Below, piece after piece: positions 19,866-34,246 of a DNA stretch of 64,000 nt. The first letter of the stretch is position 1. Every line of letters starts with the position of its first letter. Location: assembly GCF_000240165.1 (NCBI RefSeq), contig NC_017585.1:1612001-1676000 (forward strand), given 5' to 3'. The position numbers and the translations under genes are program-made. The notes beneath the pieces were generated by a model. It was not told where the DNA came from. It saw only the letters and a list, made by a program, of their open reading frames with translations, and made no database searches. The DNA is from Streptantibioticus cattleyicolor NRRL 8057 = DSM 46488. GTDB lineage: Bacteria > Actinomycetota > Actinomycetes > Streptomycetales > Streptomycetaceae.

Positions 19866-20510
19866 ATGACCGGCCGCTTGCCTCACCCCGCGCGCTCCGA
19901 CGCCCGCGACAACCGTGCCCGCATCCTGGACGCCGCCCGCGCGGTCTTCGGGGAGAAGGGACTGGACGTGCCGATGCGAGAAGTCGCCCGGCACGCGAAC
20001 GTGGGCCCCGCCACGCTGTACCGGCACTTCCCGACCAAGCGGGACCTGATCGCGGAGACCTTCGCCGAGCAGCGGCGGGCCTGCCACGCCATCGTCCGCG
20101 ACGCCCTCGCGGACCCGGATCCGTGGCACGGGTTCCGGAGCCTGGTCGAGCGGATCTGCGAACTCCACGCGCACAGCCGGGGGTTCGCCGACGCCTTCAT
20201 GACGGCCTTCCCCGAGGCCATGGACTTCGCCGCCGACCGGGAGCGGACCTTGCGCGCGGTCACCGTTCTGGCCCGCCGTGCCCGCGACACCGGCCGGCTC
20301 CGCCCCGGCTTCGTCGTCGACGACCTGGTCCTCATGCTCATGGCCCACCGTGGCGTCGGCGACACGCCGCGAGCCGACCGTCTCACGGCCTCCCGCCGTT
20401 TCGCCGCCTACATGATCGAGGCGTTCCGCGCCGCACCGGAGACGGAAACCCCCGCACCGCTGCCGTCGGCCCCACGCCTGCGTTCCGCGCCGACACGCGA
20501 AGCACCGTGA
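19866..20510 (+). CDS. TetR-family transcriptional regulator
   Basis: A 214-aa regulator with an N-terminal helix-turn-helix (about 15-62): ARILDAARAVFGEKG, MREVARHANVGPATLYRHFPTKRDLI. The helical ligand-binding half follows; the last 20 residues are Pro/Ala-rich and probably disordered. It is divergent from the oxidoreductase gene with a gap of about 150 bp, the common layout in which the TetR protein represses its neighbour and the inducer is the enzyme's substrate. I could not find a clear palindrome in the gap. Confidence 0.92.
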   Translation: MTGRLPHPARSDARDNRARILDAARAVFGEKGLDVPMREVARHANVGPATLYRHFPTKRDLIAETFAEQRRACHAIVRDALADPDPWHGFRSLVERICELHAHSRGFADAFMTAFPEAMDFAADRERTLRAVTVLARRARDTGRLRPGFVVDDLVLMLMAHRGVGDTPRADRLTASRRFAAYMIEAFRAAPETETPAPLPSAPRLRSAPTREAP

Positions 20511-20935
20511 CGGGAAAAGGGGTCAACGAGACCGAGCAGAAGCATGGTCCGGATCGACGGGCTCAGGTGCATGACGGCGGTGAGCGCCCCGGCCAGCGCG
20601 GCGAAGAGCGAGAACGTTGGCGCCTGCCCGGCGCTGTCCAGCAGCAACCCGGCGAGCGGCGGACCGACGGGCCCGGCCGCCAGCATCGCGGTGCTGACGA
20701 CCCGCCCTTGCAGTCCGGGCGGCGTGACGTCGATCTGCGCCGCGAAAAGTGTGGCGTTCGCCGGCGTGGTGATGAAGAACATCACGGCCAGCAACGCGCC
20801 GACTCCATAGGTGTTGCGCACCTGCCCGAGCAGCGCCAACGCCACACCGTCTGCCGCGCGCCGCGTCGTCCTTGGCCACCAGCCCCCCGCGTCGTGTCCC
20901 TCCCGCACCCCCTCGGTGCGAGGACGGTGCAGCAT
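20408..20935 (-). pseudogene. Remnant of an MFS exporter (C-terminal part only)
   Basis: The frame encodes a recognisable MFS C-terminal region between about 20500 and 20870: a helix near LLAVMFFITTPANATL, the loop TPPGLQGRVVSTAMLAAGPVGPPLAGLLLDSAG, and a last helix FSLFAALAGALTAVM followed by LSPSIR. This matches the end of MFS drug or siderophore exporters, but the first eight or so helices are absent and the upstream 200 bp encode nothing hydrophobic. It also overlaps the 3' end of the TetR gene. It lies on the same strand and directly downstream of the RiPP operon, so it may be what is left of that operon's exporter; this is inference. Confidence 0.7.
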
Positions 20936-21143: not shown

Positions 21144-21890
21144 TCAGTACGGGAAGTCACGGCGCGACTGGTACTGCTTGCCCCCGAGCAGTCGCACCAC
21201 GATGTCCGACGGGTTGGTGAGCGCTCTCAATTGGGCGCGCATGTCTTCCTGCGGGACGCAGAAGGTGTGGGTGTAGGTGACGAGGAGGGCGGACCTCAGT
21301 GCTGTGGTGCGGTTGGGGCGGGAGGTGTGCCACCAGGCGCCGTCGGCGAAGATCGCGCTGCCGCGGGGGCCGGTGAGGATCTCGCCGTCGTCGCACCAGG
21401 AGTCGCCCATGTCGGGCAGGCGGTCGGCCCGGTGGGAACCGGGGATGCCGGCGGTGGCGCCGTTGTCTTCGGTGAAGTCGTCGAGGAACCAGATGCATTG
21501 GCCGGCGAGGGGGATGGCCGGCCATGGGGGTGTGAGGGTCCAGTAGGGGTGGTCGGCGTGCCAGTACTGCTCGACCGAGCCGGGCCACAGCGCGTTCGCG
21601 CTGAACGTCGAGCAGATCAGGTCCTCGCTCAGGTAGCGCCGCCAGACCGCGAGGACGAGCGGGTGCACCAGGGCTTCGGAGAACACCGGGTCCTTGACCA
21701 GGAGGTGCAGGACGCGCTGGTGACCGCTGGAGTGCAGATTGCGTCCCTTCTCCGCGTGCAGCAGGCGTTCCAGGGCCGTCCGCATGCGGTCGACGGTCGG
21801 TGCGGGCAGCAGGTTCTCGACGACCACGTAGCCGCGCTCGCCGATGGTGCGCACCGTCGAGTCGACCAGGTCGAGTTCTGTCGTCGTCAT
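21144..21890 (-). CDS. PhyH-family Fe(II)/2-oxoglutarate dioxygenase of the RiPP operon
   Basis: A 248-aa non-heme iron oxygenase of the phytanoyl-CoA dioxygenase superfamily. The iron ligands appear as HAD (His111, Asp113, in EQYWHADHPYW) and the distal His188 (in WWHTS), with Arg199 as candidate 2-oxoglutarate anchor. PhyH proteins hydroxylate or halogenate carrier-bound or free substrates. It is the last intact gene of the RiPP operon, 20 bp after the TfuA-YcaO gene, so the substrate is probably the modified peptide. HAD rather than HAG or HAA at the second ligand position argues for hydroxylation rather than halogenation. ATG has GGAGAA upstream. Confidence 0.9.
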   Translation of the reverse strand: MTTTELDLVDSTVRTIGERGYVVVENLLPAPTVDRMRTALERLLHAEKGRNLHSSGHQRVLHLLVKDPVFSEALVHPLVLAVWRRYLSEDLICSTFSANALWPGSVEQYWHADHPYWTLTPPWPAIPLAGQCIWFLDDFTEDNGATAGIPGSHRADRLPDMGDSWCDDGEILTGPRGSAIFADGAWWHTSRPNRTTALRSALLVTYTHTFCVPQEDMRAQLRALTNPSDIVVRLLGGKQYQSRRDFPY

Positions 21891-21910: not shown

Positions 21911-24517
21911 TCAGGACCAGCGGGGCAGGAGGTCGCGAAGGAGCGCCAGGCGGGCGCGTTCTCCGGTGGCGAAGGGGTTGTTGGACTCCAGGCCGGGCAC
22001 CATGACCCGGACGACGTGCGCGGGTTCGGTCTCCGGACACGTCAGGTCGAGTACCGGAACGTGCGCCAGACCGGCGTCACCCACCCGCCGCAGCGCCCAC
22101 CACAGGTCGTCGAGGACGTCGTCGCTGGTCAGGCCCGGCGCCAGCGGGGCCGGCACGATGTCCGGGTCGAGCCAGAACCAGGCGTCGTCGTGCGCGATGG
22201 GGCGTGGCCTCTCATGGCGGCCGAGGCTGCGGGCCTTGATCGTGAGGTCTTCCCTGCCTCCCGCCACCAGGCAGGCGATCGACTGCGCGGCCTCCAGCAG
22301 CGCCATTTCGACCGCCGTGCCGGGATCCGGATGGGTGCCGTAGCCCTCGGAGCGGTTCAGATCGCGCCACACGGTCGCCATGAACGTCGGGATCCTGACA
22401 TCCGCCGTGATGTCGAGGACCCGGACGACGTGCCCGACCCGCCGCAGCCGCTCCGCCACCTCACGTGCCCCGTCCGGGACGGTGTCGAGGTCCACGAAGC
22501 GGAACGGCGGCGCCCCGGTCCGGCCGGGGTTGACCATGGCGATCTCCGCGAGACGCTGGGCGTGCCGCTCGACGTACTCGCACAGCCCGTGCAGCAGCGC
22601 CTCCTCCCGGGAGAAGCCGGACCCCAGGCCGTTGGTGGCGATGACCTTGCGCGCGCCTCGCGGGCTGAAGCAGATGTCGTGCGGGCCGCGTTCGAGCCGC
22701 AGCAGGTCGAGGGGGACGAGCACCGTCCGGCCGGTGAGGACGTCCGGGCAACGCACCCAGGTCAGCGGGGAGCCGGGGGTGTAGCCGGTGTCGTAGGGCA
22801 GGGCGAGGCTCGTCGGGTCGACGGCGTCGCCGGTCAGCTCGCGGTAACTGCCTTCGACGAGGTCGCCGGCGCAGGGCACCCACTGCTCCTGCGCCCACTT
22901 CTCCAACTCCTCCATGACGCTGCCGATGTGCGCGCCGTCCTCGGTGAGCCCCTTGCCGCTCCCGTACGTGCTGGACCAGCAGCCGTCGGGGCGGGCGGCC
23001 TGGGCGATCTGGATGCCGCCGATGTCCCCGAGTTCGCCGACCATGCCGATCCGGGTGATCCCGATCGTCTTCGCCAGCCGGGTCGCGTGGTCGCGCGCCT
23101 CGGCCAGCGGCAGGCAGAAGCGCCGTTCGCCCGGGGGCTTCTGGCGGTGTCGCAGCGGCAGGTCCGGATGGGGCACCGGCCGGCCGGCGGGCACGGTTCG
23201 TCCCGCCATCGTCGCGGCCAGCGCCCGTCCCGCGCGGCGTGCCCGTGCGAGCCGGTGGACGAAGGCGTCCTGCGCGGCGCGGTCGTCGTACCCCCACCGA
23301 GCCCACCGCCGCCGCATGGCTTCCACGTCGAAGGCAAGGTTCGCCTTGCACAACACCCGCCACGCCTCGGTGAGTTCCTCGGCGGAGGGCGGACGGGGGT
23401 CCCGCTCGGCGAACAGGTTGAGCCCGCCCAGCCGCATCACCTCCCGCTTGAGCGACGCGTGGTGCAGGAACAGCGCCACGCGAAGGGACCGCCGGAACGC
23501 GTCGGGATCGGCCTTCGCCCAGGCCATCAGCCCGGCTTCCGCGACGGCCTCCGCCTCGGCCCGGTGGTTCAGCGTGGGCACGTCGATGCCGAGGTCCGCG
23601 AGGGTGACGCGGGCTTCCTCCGAGCTGAGCCACCCCCACCGGCGCACGGCGGTCCGGAACAGCGCCTGTGCCGCGGGCACGTCGACCGGTTGGGCCAGTT
23701 CGGGCGGTACGGGGTGGGCGGCGCGCGCCCACGGTTCCAGCTTTCCGGTGAACGTGAGGAACGCGAAGAGTTCGTCGTCGACCCGGTCGCCGCTCTCCCA
23801 GATCAGCGCGGTGCCGGTGGTGACGGAACCGGGGGCGGGGCCGGGAACCGTTCGCGCCGCTGTCGCGCGGGACGCCGACCCTCGCGGGAGCACCGCGGTC
23901 GCCGCGCCGATCGCCTCCAGGACCGACTGGGCGTCCCGGTGCTTGAGGTCGTGACCGGCCAGCATGGCGACGAGGTCTTCACCGTCGGCCCGTTCCAGCA
24001 GGCCGGCGCGGTGGGCGATGCGCCGGTAGGTGCGTGCCTTGAACGGCAGTTCGAGCGCGGCCGAAAGCAGCCGCTCGGCGGCGGGTGCGTCGATCGTGCC
24101 CGAGCGGTGGAGGCGGTCGACCGCGTAGCGCACGTTCACCGAAGGCACCGTCAGCGGGGCGCCGGTCTCCTCGTCGAACAGCAACGCGACCTCGTCGTCC
24201 CGCGTCACGACGCCGTCGCGGTACCAGGCGTACACCAGCCCGACGCCGATGACACCGGGCACCTCGGTCGCGCGCAACGCGCCCATGCTGCCGCCGCCGT
24301 ACACCACGACCCCCCGCTCGACCGCCGCGCGCACCTCGGCCGGGCTGACGGAGAGGGTCTGCTCGAAGACACCATCGATGATCCCGACGACCTGACCGGC
24401 CGGGATCGCCTCGAGGTCGCCGCGCCGGACCGGGCGGCGGTAGTCGGCGTCCAGGATCGGGCGGGCCTCGGCGAGCGGCATCGACGGTCCGAGGAAGACG
24501 ATCGGCCGTGGGCTCAC
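21911..24517 (-). CDS. TfuA-YcaO fusion protein, probable thioamide synthetase
   Basis: An 868-aa protein. Residues 1 to about 190 are a TfuA domain: IVFLGPSMP, GIIDGVFEQ, GGGSMGALRATEV and YRDGVVTRDDEVALL. A helical linker follows to about 450. Residues 455-868 are a YcaO ATP-dependent domain with SREEALLHGLCEYVERHA and AVEMALLEAAQSIACLVAGG, the motifs that bind ATP. There is no C-terminal PxPxP tail, which azoline-forming YcaO enzymes usually have, and no ThiF-like partner gene. In known systems YcaO with TfuA converts a backbone amide to a thioamide, TfuA helping sulfur delivery; usually these are two proteins. GTG start overlaps the stop of the dioxygenase gene (GTGA). Expected to act on the precursor at 29092-29370. 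Confidence 0.93.
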   Translation of the reverse strand: MSPRPIVFLGPSMPLAEARPILDADYRRPVRRGDLEAIPAGQVVGIIDGVFEQTLSVSPAEVRAAVERGVVVYGGGSMGALRATEVPGVIGVGLVYAWYRDGVVTRDDEVALLFDEETGAPLTVPSVNVRYAVDRLHRSGTIDAPAAERLLSAALELPFKARTYRRIAHRAGLLERADGEDLVAMLAGHDLKHRDAQSVLEAIGAATAVLPRGSASRATAARTVPGPAPGSVTTGTALIWESGDRVDDELFAFLTFTGKLEPWARAAHPVPPELAQPVDVPAAQALFRTAVRRWGWLSSEEARVTLADLGIDVPTLNHRAEAEAVAEAGLMAWAKADPDAFRRSLRVALFLHHASLKREVMRLGGLNLFAERDPRPPSAEELTEAWRVLCKANLAFDVEAMRRRWARWGYDDRAAQDAFVHRLARARRAGRALAATMAGRTVPAGRPVPHPDLPLRHRQKPPGERRFCLPLAEARDHATRLAKTIGITRIGMVGELGDIGGIQIAQAARPDGCWSSTYGSGKGLTEDGAHIGSVMEELEKWAQEQWVPCAGDLVEGSYRELTGDAVDPTSLALPYDTGYTPGSPLTWVRCPDVLTGRTVLVPLDLLRLERGPHDICFSPRGARKVIATNGLGSGFSREEALLHGLCEYVERHAQRLAEIAMVNPGRTGAPPFRFVDLDTVPDGAREVAERLRRVGHVVRVLDITADVRIPTFMATVWRDLNRSEGYGTHPDPGTAVEMALLEAAQSIACLVAGGREDLTIKARSLGRHERPRPIAHDDAWFWLDPDIVPAPLAPGLTSDDVLDDLWWALRRVGDAGLAHVPVLDLTCPETEPAHVVRVMVPGLESNNPFATGERARLALLRDLLPRWS

Positions 24518-25701
24518 CGTGCGACCTCCTCGATCTCACCGGCCCGGGCCCGGCGCAGCAGGCCATCGGCGACCAGCTTGCGCACCACGTCCACCACGGC
24601 GTCCGTTCCCAGCGCGCCGGGCAGGTCGGCGGCGCGCACCACGGGTGCCTTCGCGACGTGCTCTAACGCGGCCAGGACGTCGATCGGGCCCCGCACCGCG
24701 CCGCCCGGGAAGTGGATCGTCGCGGAGCCGCCGTCCTCGGTCACGTGGCAGTCCGCGCCCCGAGCCCGGACCAGCCAGGTGTTCTCGTCGATGTCGTCCA
24801 GCCCGTCGTGCCGGCCCAGCCCGCCGTCCGGCAGGACCACCCGCCGCGTGGTTCGCCGCGCGGCCACCCCGCCGAGCAGGCCCGGCAAGGCGGTGCGCAC
24901 GTCCGGGGAGGCGAGCAGCTCGGCCAGGCCCGAGGCGAGAGCGGCGGCATCGGCCGTGCGCGCGCGGGGAACGTGCGCGTCCAGACCGGGCAGGGCCGCC
25001 ACGACCTCGTCGAGGACGTCCCGCCACCGCAGCGGGAACAACCGGAGCGTCACATGCAGGGAGCGCTCGGCCCCGGTCCGGGCCGCGTGGCCGCAGTGCT
25101 GAGGTATGTACAGCACGTCTCCCGGCCCGAGCGAGAACTCCCGGAACCGCAGTCGCGCCCACTCCCGCGGCGGGACCGCGCCCGGCCGTGGCGGGCCGGC
25201 CCGTTCCTCCACCATCCAGGACTTGCGCCCCTCCATGTGGAGGACGAGGCTGCCGTGCTCGTCGCGATGGGGTGCGAAGCCCTGGGCGGAGCGCGGCGTG
25301 GCGAAGACGTGGGCGCCGGCCGGTTCGCGGAGGGGGACGCCGTGGTCGGCCAGGTCGAGTTCGACGCTTCGGCACAGGTCGGCCAGGGGCGGTGAGAGCC
25401 GGTGCGCCTTGGTCAGGTACAGCGTTTCGCCGCCCTCGAACGCCCGCCGGACCTGCCGCAGGTCGAGCATCCCGTCGGCGTCGATGAACACGGCCGGAAG
25501 ACAACGCCGTTCACCACCCCGGGCGAGGTGGAGCACGCCCTTGTGGGCGTGGTGCAACGCGCCGAGCATCGCCTCGAAGCCGTCGAGGTCGAGCAACGAG
25601 GCCCCCGCGGCGGCGCCGGGGAAAAGACACGGGTCAAGGGCCCATACGGTGTCGAGGAAGTCCGTCACGGTCGTCGGGCGGAGCAGATCCGCGAGCGTCA
25701 C
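24514..25701 (-). CDS. JmjC-like (cupin_4) Fe(II)/2OG hydroxylase
   Basis: A 395-aa protein of the ribosomal-oxygenase-like cupin family. The iron site is visible as QGFAPHRDEHG (His145, Asp147) followed by MEGRKSW and the distal His205 in IPQHCGHAA, then SLHVTL. The C-terminal third is the helical/winged-helix part usual in this family. Known relatives hydroxylate amino acid side chains in proteins, so hydroxylation of the RiPP precursor is the natural inference. The GTG start overlaps the radical SAM stop (GTGA), and its own stop overlaps the TfuA-YcaO start. Codon 346 is a rare TTA. Confidence 0.92.
   Translation of the reverse strand: MTLADLLRPTTVTDFLDTVWALDPCLFPGAAAGASLLDLDGFEAMLGALHHAHKGVLHLARGGERRCLPAVFIDADGMLDLRQVRRAFEGGETLYLTKAHRLSPPLADLCRSVELDLADHGVPLREPAGAHVFATPRSAQGFAPHRDEHGSLVLHMEGRKSWMVEERAGPPRPGAVPPREWARLRFREFSLGPGDVLYIPQHCGHAARTGAERSLHVTLRLFPLRWRDVLDEVVAALPGLDAHVPRARTADAAALASGLAELLASPDVRTALPGLLGGVAARRTTRRVVLPDGGLGRHDGLDDIDENTWLVRARGADCHVTEDGGSATIHFPGGAVRGPIDVLAALEHVAKAPVVRAADLPGALGTDAVVDVVRKLVADGLLRRARAGEIEEVAR
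24664..24666 (-). promoter_or_regulatory. TTA leucine codon in the RiPP-operon JmjC-like gene
   Basis: In frame with the dioxygenase (codon 346, Ala-Leu-Glu context). In Streptomyces this makes translation depend on the bldA tRNA, and as the gene is translationally coupled to both neighbours the effect could spread through the operon. Confidence 0.7.
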
Positions 25702-27251
25702 GAACCCTCCAGCCCGGTTTCGGGCCGGACCTGTTGTGCGGGCTCGGGGACCGCTCGGTAGCGGCGGACGAGGAAGCGGCGCCTGCGGACCTTCTCCTCG
25801 GGCGTGCAGGTGGTGATCAGCCTGCTGCCGGTGTGCTTCTCGTCCTCCACCCGGCAGCTGCCGCCGCAGATGTTGCGCAGGTCGCAGGAGCTGCAGCCCT
25901 TCCGGTGGTCGACCCCGAAGGCCGCGGCCGTGCGCCCGAGATACTTGGTGATCTCGCCGAGGGGCAGCTGGTCGATGTGTCCGAGTGCGCCGGACATCAG
26001 GTGGCAGGGGTACACCAGTCCGTCGGGTGCGACGACGAGCTGTTCGGCGTATCCGCAACCGCTGATCTTCTGCACCATGTTGGGCCCGTGCACCCGGTCG
26101 TCCTCGGCGCGCAGCCCGCCCAGCAGTTCGTCGACCCAGGCACGCACCTGGTCGGTGTCCAGGTCGTGGTCGAGGTCGGTGCCCCGCCCGTGCGCCATGG
26201 CGCCGTAGCTGATGCGGAACCGCAGATCGGTGCCGCGCCACTGCTCGATGAAGCCGGGCAGTCCCGCTTTGATCGCCGGCCAGTTGTTGACCATGATGGT
26301 GGTGCTGACCCGGGTCTGCACCCCGGCGTCGAGCAGCAGCCGGATGGCACGCGTGGCCCGGCGGAAGGAGTGGCGGCCACGGATCGCGTCGTGGATCTCC
26401 GCCGTGGGCCCGTCGATGCTGATCTGGACGATGTCGGTGTAGCGGACGATGTCGTCGAGGTGTTTGGGCACGGCCATGCCGTTGGAGAACAACGTGACTT
26501 CCAGCCCGAGTTCGTGAGCGCGTCGCATCACCGGGACGCAGCCCTCGTGCACTAGCGCCTCGCCGCCGGTGAGCAGCAGCTTCTGCCCGCCGTTCGCGGC
26601 GAAGTCCTCCACCAGCTGGATCCAGCGCTCGGTGGGCAGTTCACCGTCCTTGGGCAGGAACGGGCTGGAGTTGGTGTAACAGTGCACGCACTGGAGCTGG
26701 CAGCGGTGGGTGAGGTGGAACCGGGCGAACATGTGCGGCCGGACCTGCTTGACGGAGTGGTAGCCGCGGATGCCGCGGACCATCCCGGCGAAGGCGAGCC
26801 GCCCGACGAGCTTGGCCATCGCCTCCGTCGCCGCCTCCGGGGCGAGCCCGCGGTTGCGGTGCATCTCACGCGCGGCGTCGGCGGGTGTCGTGCCCGCGGT
26901 GAGGAGGGTGAGCAGTTCGTGGTCGATGTCGTCGGCGACCAGCAGCTTTCCGTCCTCGACGGCGATCCAGAGGTGGTCGTCGTCGACCTCGTGGTGGACG
27001 AGCGAGGAGACGAACGGGATCGGCTCCGTCGTGGACAGGTCGTAGATGTCACGGGTGCCGTCCGCGGACCGGCGCGCGGGACGTTCCTCGTCCGTGGCGG
27101 CGGGGGGAGCAGGGTCCTCCAGGCCGACGGCGCCGAACGGGGCCCGGTCCGGTGCCCCGAAGCGGGGGATCGGCTGCGCCTCGTCGGGTCCGGAGAGTGC
27201 CGGGCCTCCCTGCCAGGCACGTAGGGTCAGCAGAGTCTCTTTGCCGCTCAT
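25698..27251 (-). CDS. Radical SAM/SPASM RiPP maturase with PqqD-like domain
   Basis: A 517-aa enzyme. Residues 1-75 look disordered. Residues 83-160 form a PqqD-like recognition domain (VHHEVDDDHLWIAVED, HELLTLLTAGTTPADAA, GRLAFAGMV), which binds leader peptides. The radical SAM core has the cluster motif CQLQCVHC (Cys184, Cys188, Cys191) and the TGGEALVHEG and ISIDGPTAEIHDAIRG elements. The C-terminus is a SPASM domain for auxiliary Fe-S clusters (CGY...PCHL, then CSSCDLRNICGGSC and a last Cys). It should bind the precursor leader and make a C-C, C-S, C-O or epimer modification; which one is not readable. It is the only leader-recognition domain I see in the operon. Good GAGAGGAA before the ATG; 33 bp after the upstream gene. 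Confidence 0.94.
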   Translation of the reverse strand: MSGKETLLTLRAWQGGPALSGPDEAQPIPRFGAPDRAPFGAVGLEDPAPPAATDEERPARRSADGTRDIYDLSTTEPIPFVSSLVHHEVDDDHLWIAVEDGKLLVADDIDHELLTLLTAGTTPADAAREMHRNRGLAPEAATEAMAKLVGRLAFAGMVRGIRGYHSVKQVRPHMFARFHLTHRCQLQCVHCYTNSSPFLPKDGELPTERWIQLVEDFAANGGQKLLLTGGEALVHEGCVPVMRRAHELGLEVTLFSNGMAVPKHLDDIVRYTDIVQISIDGPTAEIHDAIRGRHSFRRATRAIRLLLDAGVQTRVSTTIMVNNWPAIKAGLPGFIEQWRGTDLRFRISYGAMAHGRGTDLDHDLDTDQVRAWVDELLGGLRAEDDRVHGPNMVQKISGCGYAEQLVVAPDGLVYPCHLMSGALGHIDQLPLGEITKYLGRTAAAFGVDHRKGCSSCDLRNICGGSCRVEDEKHTGSRLITTCTPEEKVRRRRFLVRRYRAVPEPAQQVRPETGLEGS

Positions 27252-29091: not shown

Positions 29092-29370
29092 TCAACAGCT
29101 CGGCCCGCCGATGTTGGAGAAACACCCGGTGCTCGCGGTGATCATGCCGAAGCTCTGGTTCTCCACCTCGACGTCGATGCTTTCGAGGGAGATGGACATC
29201 TTCCCCGGGACCGGCATCGCCTCGTCGGCCCCCTCCGTCCGGGGGCTTCGCGGTGTGGCCGGGGCCTGGTCGGCGTCGGTCAGCTCCACCAGCGGGCTGT
29301 CGACGCCTTCGTACACCTCGGCCACGATCTCTTTCTCGGCCAGCTGCGACGGGTTGGCGGGCTCGGGCAC
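29092..29370 (-). CDS. RiPP precursor peptide
   Basis: A 92-aa peptide with no enzyme-like features. The leader is acidic and Pro/Ala-rich (for example AEKEIVAEVYEGVDSPLVEL, residues 11-30), followed by a linker and a conserved-looking MSISLESIDVEVENQ (58-72). The last part, from Gly75 to the C-terminus, is small and polar: ITASTGC then FSNIGGPSC, with Cys83 and the C-terminal Cys92 the only cysteines. Thr78, Ser80, Thr81, Ser85, Asn86, Pro90 and Ser91 are candidate hydroxylation or heterocycle sites. It is the first gene of the operon, before five modification genes and with GAGGAG ahead of its GTG, so ribosome loading is strong. The cleavage site is unknown; a core of 16-18 residues starting near Gly75-Ile77 is my guess. 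Confidence 0.85.
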   Translation of the reverse strand: MPEPANPSQLAEKEIVAEVYEGVDSPLVELTDADQAPATPRSPRTEGADEAMPVPGKMSISLESIDVEVENQSFGMITASTGCFSNIGGPSC

Positions 29371-29840
29371 GGCACGCTCCTCAAGGTCAGGGCGGACGAC
29401 GGAACGAAGGGGGAATGTGTTGGGGAGGAAGCTCTTACCTGTGATCTCCCGGCACGGGACGTGACGCCTGTTCTCGCGGCGATCACCCGACACGCACGGC
29501 GTCGGCAGCTCACGGCAGGGACTTCCGGAAGTGCCCGTACATCGGGCAGTCCTGAGAGTGCATGCTGAGTCTGCCGCGCCATGCGGCTCTTCCGGCAGGC
29601 GTTAGTCAGCCAATCCCCTGGCACGGCCTGCGTGCGGCCTGCGCCGGTCGGCCCGGAACCCCAGCAGTGTCTTCAGCCCCAAGAGGATGTCCCCTGTGCT
29701 GGTCAGTGCCTCGGGCCGGACGCGCGGGGTGAGGGTGCGCGGGCAGCCCTGAGATGCTGGGTTCTGAGGTCGTCCGCGCCCGAGCCGCAGGCCGGAAGTG
29801 GGTGGCTCCCCTCCACCGCGCAAAAGGCTCACAAGGGGGC
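29371..29840. promoter_or_regulatory. Promoter region of the RiPP operon, with inverted repeat
   Basis: About 470 bp with no recognisable gene. It must contain the RiPP operon promoter, reading leftwards. ACTTCCGGAAGT at 29521-29532 is a perfect 12-bp palindrome, flanked by GGG and GCCC that could lengthen the stem, and GCCCG-N5-CGGGC follows at once. This could be an operator about 150 bp before the precursor start, or a terminator of the gene at 29841. I could not place -35/-10 boxes. Confidence 0.4.
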
Positions 29841-30365
29841 TCAGACACGCAGCTGCCGGAGCATGACGGTGAAGCTGGGTGCGCCCGGGAACGGCTGCCG
29901 GTCGCCGATCCGGCGGTAACCCCACGTCGCGTACAACGCCTCCACCTTCGGGTGCTCGGAGTCGACCAGGAGCACGGCCAGCGCCTCCGGCCGGCCCGCG
30001 ATCAGTGCCGCGTGGAGCTGCGCCGCGGCCCCGGTCTTCCGCCGGCGCGGGATCACCATCAGCTCGGAGACGGCGAACGTCGAGGCGTCCGCCGGTGGCG
30101 TGGGCAGATGTTCACGCCACCACTCACAGCCGGGCGGGGCCGGGGCCCCGTAGGCGAACCCGACCGGCTCCTCACCGTCGTAGCCGACGACACACGTGAA
30201 CCCCGGGTAGCCGCCCCAGCGATCGACGGACCCGGCGAAGTGCCGGCCGGCCTCGTCGTCCAACTCGTCCGCGTAGGCGCCCGCGTGCACGTCCATGAGC
30301 GTCTGCCGGATGCCCGGCAGGCCCTCGCGGCCGAACCGGCGAAGCGCGACGGGTGTGCGGCTCAA
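29841..30365 (-). CDS. GNAT-family N-acetyltransferase
   Basis: A 174-aa acetyltransferase. VSELMVIPRRRKTGAAAQLHAAL contains the acetyl-CoA pyrophosphate-binding loop (R/Q-x-x-G/A in a degenerate form), and VLLVDSEHPKVEALYATWGYRRIG is the C-terminal GNAT motif. The substrate is unknown. It lies upstream of the RiPP operon on the same strand but 470 bp away with a likely operon promoter between, so membership is doubtful; N-terminal acetylation of a peptide would be possible but is unsupported. The start is uncertain; TTG at 30365 has GGGAGC eight bases before it and the homology starts there. Confidence 0.8.
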   Translation of the reverse strand: MSRTPVALRRFGREGLPGIRQTLMDVHAGAYADELDDEAGRHFAGSVDRWGGYPGFTCVVGYDGEEPVGFAYGAPAPPGCEWWREHLPTPPADASTFAVSELMVIPRRRKTGAAAQLHAALIAGRPEALAVLLVDSEHPKVEALYATWGYRRIGDRQPFPGAPSFTVMLRQLRV

Positions 30366-32860: not shown

Positions 32861-33913
32861 TCAGGCCGCGTCCTCCATGACGAGGACGGGGTCCACGCCC
32901 TCCCCGCGCAGCACCGCGCGCCGTGCCCGCAGCAGCAACTCGCCCGGCCGCACCCCGAGTTCGTCGGCGAGCTTCCGGCGGGCGCGGTCGAAGACGGCCA
33001 GCGCGTCGGCCCGCAGCCCGTTGCGTGTGAGCGCGCACATCAGCAGCGCGCAGACCGGTTCGTTCAGCGGTTGCTCCAGGGCGAGGGCGGACAGCCCGGC
33101 GACCGCGTCGGCGTACCGGCCGAGGCGGAGCTGCCAGCCCGCCCTGCGTCGCGTCAGGGCGGCCCTGCGCTCGACGAGACGCAGCCGCGCCGACTCGGCC
33201 GACGGTCCCGGCAGGCCCGCCAGCGGCTCGCCGCGGAACAGGTCCAGCGCCAGACCGCACAGGCGCATCGCCTCGGCCAGGTCGCCCGCCCGCTCGGCCC
33301 CGCCCGCCGCCGCGGCCAACTCCTCCATGTGTGCCACGTCCACGTCGACCAGACCGCGGTCGAGCCGGTAGCCGTACCGGTCGTGACCGATCACCGGGTC
33401 CGGGCGGTCGTCACGCCGCAGGACCTTGCGCAGCCGGTAGACATAGACCGGCACGACGTTGCCGTCCGGCCAGTTGGTCCCCCATACGCCGTCGAGCAGT
33501 TCGCGTCGGCTGACCGACCGGTCGGGGCTCAGGGCCAGCGCCGCCAGGACGGCCTGCTGGCGGACCGGGCCGAGGTCCACGAACCGTCCGGCGCGGCACG
33601 CCCGCAGCGGGCCGAGCACGGAGATCCGCAGCCACGGAACGGACATCGGACCCGGCCCGTGCCTGCGTGGGCCGTGGCCGGGCGTGACCAGGCCGCAGTC
33701 GAAGGCGTGGACGATGGCGGCGGCCCGGTCGCGCAGGCCCAGCTTCGCCAGAATGCTGCGGAGATGCCAGGCCACCGCGTGCTCCGGCACCGCGAGGAGG
33801 TCGGCGATCTCCGCGTCCGCCAAGCCGCAACCGATCGCGTACAGAACCTCGTTCTCCTGATCCGTGAGGGCTGTCACCGTCGGTCGTGCGTGGAGCGCGG
33901 TCGTCGTAGGCAT
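32861..33913 (-). CDS. Hybrid LuxR-HTH / SARP-type transcriptional regulator
   Basis: A 350-aa regulator with two DNA-binding modules. Residues about 18-75 look like a LuxR/GerE helix-turn-helix (LTDQENEVLYAIGCGLADAEIADLLAVPEHAVAWHLRSILAKLGL). Residues about 100-185 are the winged-helix of SARP/OmpR type (ISVLGPLRACRAGRFVDLGPVRQQAVLAALAL, GNVVPVYVYRLRKVL, YGYRLDRG), followed by a bacterial transcriptional activation domain to about 340. SARPs usually activate antibiotic clusters. An N-terminal LuxR domain in front of a SARP is unusual. ATG at 33913 after GGGGAA. Its targets may include the protease next to it or the FAD monooxygenase. Confidence 0.88.
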   Translation of the reverse strand: MPTTTALHARPTVTALTDQENEVLYAIGCGLADAEIADLLAVPEHAVAWHLRSILAKLGLRDRAAAIVHAFDCGLVTPGHGPRRHGPGPMSVPWLRISVLGPLRACRAGRFVDLGPVRQQAVLAALALSPDRSVSRRELLDGVWGTNWPDGNVVPVYVYRLRKVLRRDDRPDPVIGHDRYGYRLDRGLVDVDVAHMEELAAAAGGAERAGDLAEAMRLCGLALDLFRGEPLAGLPGPSAESARLRLVERRAALTRRRAGWQLRLGRYADAVAGLSALALEQPLNEPVCALLMCALTRNGLRADALAVFDRARRKLADELGVRPGELLLRARRAVLRGEGVDPVLVMEDAA

Positions 33914-34246
33914 GGCGGTTCCCCGTGTCACCGGACCGGCCGCTCCGGTCCGTCCTGATCGATCCCGTCGATGCCGTCGAGGCTGGCCGAGTACCTGCAC
34001 CACGCACAGGCCATCGCACCGGCCATATCCGGCCGCCGACCCTGCCGACGTGTCTGAGCTGGGGAAACGTGGCTCAGGGCGAAGGGCCGTGACCCTGGTG
34101 GCCGATGGCTCGGTGCGGTGCCGGAGAGGTGTCCACGCCCGGCGGGACGACCGCTCGCCCGGGCGTGGCCCTCCGGGTGCGCTCGCGCCGCCGCCCGCAG
34201 CCGCTCCGGCGGGGAGTACGCGTCCGGCGACCCGGGCGGCTTCCGC
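33914..34246. other. Intergenic region without recognisable gene
   Basis: 333 bp between the SARP-type regulator and the FAD monooxygenase, both on the minus strand. It should hold the promoter of the regulator. CTGAGC-N12-GCTCAG (34054-34077) is a weak inverted repeat. No protein-like frame is seen. Confidence 0.35.

What the first reader, a model, noticed from the sequence alone, without database searches (positions are those of the whole stretch)
29092..29370. Precursor peptide with core ending ITASTGC...IGGPSC
Seen: a 92-aa acidic leader peptide with strong GAGGAG site, only two cysteines (83 and the C-terminal 92), and a small polar tail. The tail has many Ser/Thr/Asn/Pro sites that suit the oxygenases and two Cys that suit radical or thiazole/thioether chemistry. 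The end (IGG followed by a Cys) loosely recalls the trifolitoxin core DIGGSRQGC from the system where TfuA was named; that resemblance is from memory and may be chance.
Basis: partly seen in the sequence, partly recalled or inferred. Interest (0 to 1): 0.85.

Follow-up and report, generated by a model that had tools for sequence, protein, structure and literature searches.

The report
Conserved peptide of a rare oxygenase-rich RiPP
A small gene in an antibiotic-producing soil bacterium encodes a peptide whose last 22 residues are nearly the same in two other actinobacteria and in an uncultured alphaproteobacterium, always beside the same set of modifying enzymes, so it is very likely the raw material of a new kind of heavily modified peptide natural product.

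Summary
A 92-codon frame, GTG 29370 to TGA 29092 on the minus strand, opens a tight operon on the pSCAT megaplasmid of Streptantibioticus cattleyicolor. Homologues lie in the same place in Actinomadura terrae, Streptomyces wedmorensis and an uncultured Rhodobacteraceae bacterium. Fifteen of the last 22 residues are invariant in all four, including Cys83 and the C-terminal Cys92. The operon encodes a fused TfuA-YcaO, a SPASM radical SAM enzyme, and four intact 2-oxoglutarate/Fe oxygenase domains (two JmjC, one PKHD-type, one PhyH). I conclude that it is the precursor of a rare RiPP family; the enzyme folds best fit backbone thioamidation. A thioether from Cys83/Cys92 and several hydroxylations are likely but unproven. 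The trifolitoxin resemblance is chance: the Ile of IGG varies (I/P/V/K) and the essential RQGC of trifolitoxin is absent. No report of this gene combination was found in the papers I could search. New variant of a known kind.

The parts
29092..29370 (-). RiPP precursor gene, 92 aa, GTG start
   Evidence: translation; homologues in L006, L007, L010
29161..29370 (-). leader, residues 1-70; residues 57-70 (KMSISLESIDVEVE) are its conserved end, likely the enzyme-docking segment
   Evidence: residues 1-56 are 18-49% identical between loci, 57-70 36-86%
29095..29160 (-). predicted core, residues 71-92 NQSFGMITASTGCFSNIGGPSC; family motif NQS[FY]GM[IV]xA[SC]TGCxSNxGGP[SG]C
   Evidence: 15 of 22 residues invariant in 4 loci; dN/dS 0.12-0.26 where dS is measurable
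29377..29382 (-). ribosome-binding site GAGGAG, 6 nt before the start
   Evidence: sequence; conserved at the same spacing in L006 and L007
27285..29075 (-). gene B: JmjC_2 oxygenase fused to a PKHD-type 2OG-Fe(II) oxygenase (596 aa); two separate genes in L010
   Evidence: Pfam, nearest solved NO66/MINA and a PKHD hydroxylase, intact metal triads in 4/4 loci
25698..27251 (-). gene C: radical SAM/SPASM protein (517 aa)
   Evidence: Pfam, NCBIfam StsB-type sactipeptide maturase 140.7 bits, below its cut-off of 625, nearest solved SkfB
24514..25701 (-). gene D: second JmjC_2 oxygenase (395 aa), GTGA overlap with gene C
   Evidence: Pfam; triad intact in 4/4 loci
21911..24517 (-). gene E: TfuA - helical middle domain - YcaO fusion (868 aa)
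   Evidence: Pfam; model matches TfuA 6xp8 and methanogen YcaO structures
21144..21890 (-). gene F: PhyH-type 2OG oxygenase (248 aa), end of the operon
   Evidence: Pfam; triad intact in 4/4 loci
29841..30350 (-). GNAT acetyltransferase, probably accessory or a bystander
   Evidence: Pfam; adjacent in L006 too, no match in the genomes of L007 and L010, common on Streptomyces plasmids

Best explanation
The gene encodes the precursor of a rare family of ribosomally made, post-translationally modified peptides. The leader (residues 1 to about 70, in particular KMSISLESIDVEVE) docks the enzymes. The core NQSFGMITASTGCFSNIGGPSC is then modified by the co-transcribed enzymes: TfuA-YcaO turns one or more backbone amides (most likely at a conserved Gly: 75, 82, 88 or 89) into thioamides; the radical SAM enzyme links Cys83 and/or Cys92 to another residue through a thioether; and the four 2OG oxygenase domains hydroxylate conserved residues such as Asn71, Asn86, Ser/Thr or Pro90. 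The leader is cut off by a protease outside the operon and the product is exported. Shown here: the peptide gene, its conservation and selection pattern, the linkage to the enzymes, and their intact active sites. Inferred: every chemical step, the cleavage site, export and the biological role. My estimates: it is the substrate of these enzymes 0.93; a thioamide 0.75; hydroxylation 0.7; a Cys thioether 0.5.
For: Peptide homologues sit at the head of the same gene set in three other organisms of two phyla. The core is 73-86% identical between all pairs while leader 1-56 is 18-49%; dN/dS of the core 0.12-0.26 against about 0.8-1.2 for the leader among the actinobacterial pairs. Operon genes overlap or lie within 35 nt of each other. 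Domains: JmjC_2+2OG, rSAM/SPASM, JmjC_2, TfuA+YcaO, PhyH. The TfuA part matches the Methanosarcina thioamidation TfuA (TM 0.85 by target length) and the YcaO part matches methanogen YcaOs ahead of azoline cyclodehydratases. The radical SAM part is nearest to sactionine maturases StsB and SkfB. Both Cys and four Gly are invariant.
Against: No product, mass or expression data. The radical SAM enzyme is far below the NCBIfam cut-off of any named maturase, and other SPASM enzymes make C-C, ether or epimer products. No RRE domain was recognised by Pfam and the model of that protein has low confidence. Only four loci are known, so conservation of the core could partly reflect recent transfer. No peptidase or dedicated exporter is shared by the four loci.
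Confidence: 0.82

Rival explanations
1. Same precursor, but the YcaO domain makes azolines at Cys/Ser/Thr (thiazoline at Cys83/Cys92), as in linear azol(in)e peptides and trifolitoxin, and not a thioamide.
For: Both Cys invariant; Ser80 is replaced by Cys in S. wedmorensis, a swap typical of heterocyclised positions. Trifolitoxin has a Gly-Cys thiazoline and Gly82-Cys83 is such a dipeptide.
Against: Partner is TfuA, no E1-like/Ocin-ThiF protein or dehydrogenase in the operon; fold nearest to thioamidating TfuA and methanogen YcaO.
Confidence: 0.15
2. The mature peptide is a metal-binding molecule (metallophore), with thioamide and Cys sulphur as ligands, in the manner of methanobactin. (Compatible with the best explanation; it concerns function.)
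For: Two invariant Cys plus a likely thioamide; the Rhodobacteraceae locus has a FecCD-type importer, binding protein and ATPase just upstream, same direction.
Against: No such importer was seen in the three actinobacterial loci; no MbnB/MbnC-type protein in the operon.
Confidence: 0.12
3. The small frame is a regulatory or structural protein that happens to share the operon, not an enzyme substrate.
For: No modification shown; leader is long and acidic; no Pfam or NCBIfam family.
Against: Constraint is concentrated on a 22-residue C-terminal tail ending in Cys while the leader is free, and the gene occurs only with these enzymes in the genomes sampled.
Confidence: 0.04

Closest known systems
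Thioamidated RiPPs with TfuA-YcaO (thiovarsolins, thioamitides, thiopeptins)
   Same: TfuA and YcaO beside a short precursor gene; TfuA/YcaO folds of the thioamidating kind
   Different: TfuA and YcaO are fused, with a helical middle domain; precursor unrelated; SPASM radical SAM enzyme plus four 2OG oxygenase domains; the RiPPER survey left its three fused proteins out of its tree
Sactipeptides (SKF/SkfB, StsB type)
   Same: SPASM radical SAM enzyme whose nearest named relatives are sactionine maturases; Cys in the core
   Different: far below family cut-offs; Cys lie at the C-terminal side of the core; TfuA-YcaO present
Burkholderia thailandensis fused tfuA-ycaO cluster of Malit et al. 2021 (PMC8120280)
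   Same: fused TfuA-YcaO with radical SAM genes; a phytanoyl-CoA dioxygenase is among the gene annotations of that figure
   Different: two radical SAM genes, no JmjC mentioned; its precursor could not be compared because the supplement is not available here
Trifolitoxin (tfxABCDEFG)
   Different: RQGC absent, IGG not conserved
Thioamitides (thioviridamide)
   Same: TfuA-YcaO and a C-terminal Cys (the latter from memory)
   Different: no HFCD decarboxylase or dehydratase in the operon

Membership tests
RiPP precursor | short gene in an operon with peptide-modifying enzymes, conserved in relatives | tested here: met
RiPP precursor | leader/core division | tested here: met
   selection differs sharply between residues 1-56 and 71-92
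RiPP precursor | core is actually modified and leader removed | not testable with these tools
   needs mass spectrometry
Thioamidated RiPP (TfuA-YcaO) | TfuA and YcaO proteins in the cluster | tested here: met
   PF07812 9.5e-34 and PF02624 3.2e-66 in one protein
Thioamidated RiPP (TfuA-YcaO) | thioamide in the product | not testable with these tools
   inferred from fold
McrA-glycine thioamidation TfuA/YcaO (NF033432, TIGR03266) | score above curated cut-off | tested here: not met
   180.8 of 235.2 and 129.9 of 365 bits
Sactipeptide | SPASM radical SAM maturase of a named sactipeptide family | tested here: not met
   StsB 140.7 bits against a cut-off of 625, matched over residues 83-471
Sactipeptide | Cys to alpha-carbon thioether | not testable with these tools
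   needs product
Trifolitoxin family | RQGC core segment required for activity | tested here: not met
   absent in all four precursors
Linear azol(in)e peptide | E1-like/Ocin-ThiF partner and dehydrogenase | tested here: not met
   operon domains; nearest neighbours
Thioamitide | HFCD decarboxylase and Ser/Thr dehydration enzymes | tested here: not met
   none in the operon or tested neighbours

The most novel reading that the evidence does not exclude
One 22-residue core carries, together, a backbone thioamide (fused TfuA-YcaO), a radical-made Cys thioether and several 2OG-oxygenase hydroxylations. This would be a RiPP class not described in the papers I could search, passed between Actinomycetota and Pseudomonadota with its core almost unchanged.
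Probability: 0.35. Interest if true: 0.78.

Novelty: new variant of a known kind. Interest (0 to 1): 0.6.

Why it matters
It gives a defined substrate and a compact set of enzymes in a cultured strain, so the chemistry is directly testable: how a fused TfuA-YcaO works, what a StsB-like radical SAM enzyme does here, and which residues JmjC_2 enzymes (known as ribosomal-protein hydroxylases) modify in a natural product. The near-identity of the core across two phyla suggests a target or function that tolerates little change.

Tried and rejected
Trifolitoxin kinship: rejected (IGG not conserved, no RQGC; no plasmid match to the peptide other than pSCAT, even at E 1). A faint likeness of GM-ITASTGC to thiopeptide core starts (from memory): no NCBIfam or Pfam hit for any of the four precursors at E 10, not pursued. 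PqqD-like RRE in the radical SAM protein: the model shows two strands, three helices, two strands at residues 97-167, but its confidence is low (mean pLDDT 49.9) and Pfam finds nothing: left open. GNAT as an essential part: rejected, no match in two of the four genomes. Wider census: the precursor profile was found only in the centre genomes and S. wedmorensis among 391 genomes of the order, 295 of the Rhodobacteraceae family and 250 of the Actinomadura family; a close fused TfuA-YcaO only in the centre genomes among 296 and 299 genomes of the two phyla; a close radical SAM relative only in the own genome among 215. Seven relatives of TfuA/YcaO in viral contigs were weak (29-41%) and not studied. 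An order-wide search with the 868-aa protein failed technically. Paper searches for this enzyme combination gave nothing that matches. Supplements of the two TfuA surveys were not available, so the family may be listed there without comment.

Full report
Observation. The frame at 29092-29370 on the minus strand translates to the 92-residue peptide described, with Cys only at 83 and 92. The TfuA-YcaO protein and the peptide are 99-100% identical to those of the 1.81-Mb linear plasmid pSCAT of Streptantibioticus cattleyicolor NRRL 8057, where the PLSDB copy has no annotated genes for this stretch. The ribosome-binding site GAGGAG sits six bases before the GTG, and the actinobacterial homologues have the same site at the same spacing before TTG or ATG.

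Relatives. A scan of 84,980 species genomes with the TfuA-YcaO protein returned seven loci. Three of them, Actinomadura terrae (L006), Streptomyces wedmorensis (L007) and an uncultured Rhodobacteraceae bacterium (L010), also hold homologues of every other operon protein and, at the head of the operon, a homologue of the peptide (E 4e-26, 9e-25, 1e-14). The four precursors are 83-104 aa. The last 22 residues read NQS[FY]GM[IV]xA[SC]TGCxSNxGGP[SG]C, with 15 invariant positions. In the other four (Mycolicibacterium, a myxobacterial MAG, Teredinibacter, Bowmanella) neither the peptide nor convincing homologues of the other enzymes were found.

Selection. By Nei-Gojobori counts the core has dN 0.09-0.19 against dS 0.62 or more (dN/dS about 0.12-0.26 where dS can be estimated), whereas residues 1-56 have dN about equal to dS among the actinobacteria. 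With 22 codons these are small numbers, but the pattern is the same in all pairs, and it is the usual leader/core pattern. It also argues that the frame is translated.

Enzymes. Gene B is JmjC_2 plus a PKHD-type 2OG oxygenase, gene C a radical SAM/SPASM protein, gene D another JmjC_2, gene E TfuA plus YcaO, gene F PhyH. Genes overlap or nearly touch: B starts 16 nt after the precursor, and D overlaps C and E overlaps D by GTGA. The metal-binding His-x-Asp...His residues of all four oxygenase domains are kept in all four loci. In the Rhodobacteraceae locus B is two genes, the order differs, and a B12-binding radical SAM protein is added. The JmjC domain of gene B is nearest to the ribosomal-protein hydroxylases NO66 and MINA. 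The radical SAM protein is nearest to StsB and SkfB but far below family cut-offs. The model of gene E is of low overall confidence, but its TfuA part matches the Methanosarcina TfuA (TM 0.85 by target length) and its YcaO part matches methanogen YcaOs before azoline cyclodehydratases. Between them lies an all-helical stretch, roughly residues 247-437, which the structure search did not identify.

Mechanism. From this I infer leader-guided thioamidation, radical cross-linking through the invariant Cys, and hydroxylation. Only the linkage, conservation and active-site integrity are shown; the chemistry is inferred from families. The Gly residues favoured for thioamidation are a guess from the McrA-glycine relatives, whose models score below cut-off here.

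Comparison. It works like a thioamidated RiPP; membership in that broad kind is met at the gene level only. It is not trifolitoxin, not a thioamitide, not a classical azole peptide, and not a member of any named sactipeptide maturase family by cut-off. The closest published lead is the Burkholderia thailandensis cluster with fused tfuA-ycaO and two radical SAM genes, shown in a figure whose legend names a phytanoyl-CoA dioxygenase (PMC8120280). The RiPPER survey of actinobacterial TfuA proteins removed its three fused proteins from the tree (PMC6511847); these may include members of this family, so the locus may have been seen before without being described.

Distribution. The family is rare and scattered: two of 391 genomes of the order, one of 295 and one of 250 in the other two families, each time the centre genome or S. 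wedmorensis. The TfuA-YcaO of this Streptomycetaceae strain is closer to that of Actinomadura (86%) than to that of S. wedmorensis in its own family (80%), which suggests horizontal transfer; no tree was built.

Verdict. The precursor call is confirmed with high confidence. The product is unknown. It is a new variant of a known kind of system, of clear interest because substrate and enzymes are defined and testable.

Noticed in passing
window 32861-34003 (-): A SARP-type regulator (Trans_reg_C + BTAD) with an extra N-terminal LuxR-type DNA-binding domain, about 3.5 kb upstream of the precursor; it may or may not control the operon.
   Followed up: no
window 20408-20935 (-): A frame that reads like the end of an MFS transporter, directly downstream of the operon; no Pfam hit. 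Possibly a decayed exporter.
   Followed up: no
L008 9995-13975: Mycolicibacterium: fused TfuA-YcaO (55% identical) beside a methyltransferase, with a small acidic frame on the other strand ending NLRGGFLKTRTKTD, possibly a different precursor.
   Followed up: partly
L009 2403-9253: Myxococcales MAG with two fused TfuA-YcaO genes flanking a 402-aa protein without a Pfam family.
   Followed up: partly
window 23207-23779 (-), gene E residues about 247-437: The fusion holds an all-helical middle domain between TfuA and YcaO, present in the aligned homologues and not identified by the PDB structure search.
   Followed up: partly
L010 777-3668: FecCD permease, periplasmic binding protein and ATPase directly upstream of the Rhodobacteraceae precursor, a hint at metal or siderophore uptake.
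   Followed up: partly
L006 592-4277: A pair of ABC exporter genes upstream of the GNAT and the precursor in Actinomadura terrae; not found beside the operon in the window.
   Followed up: partly
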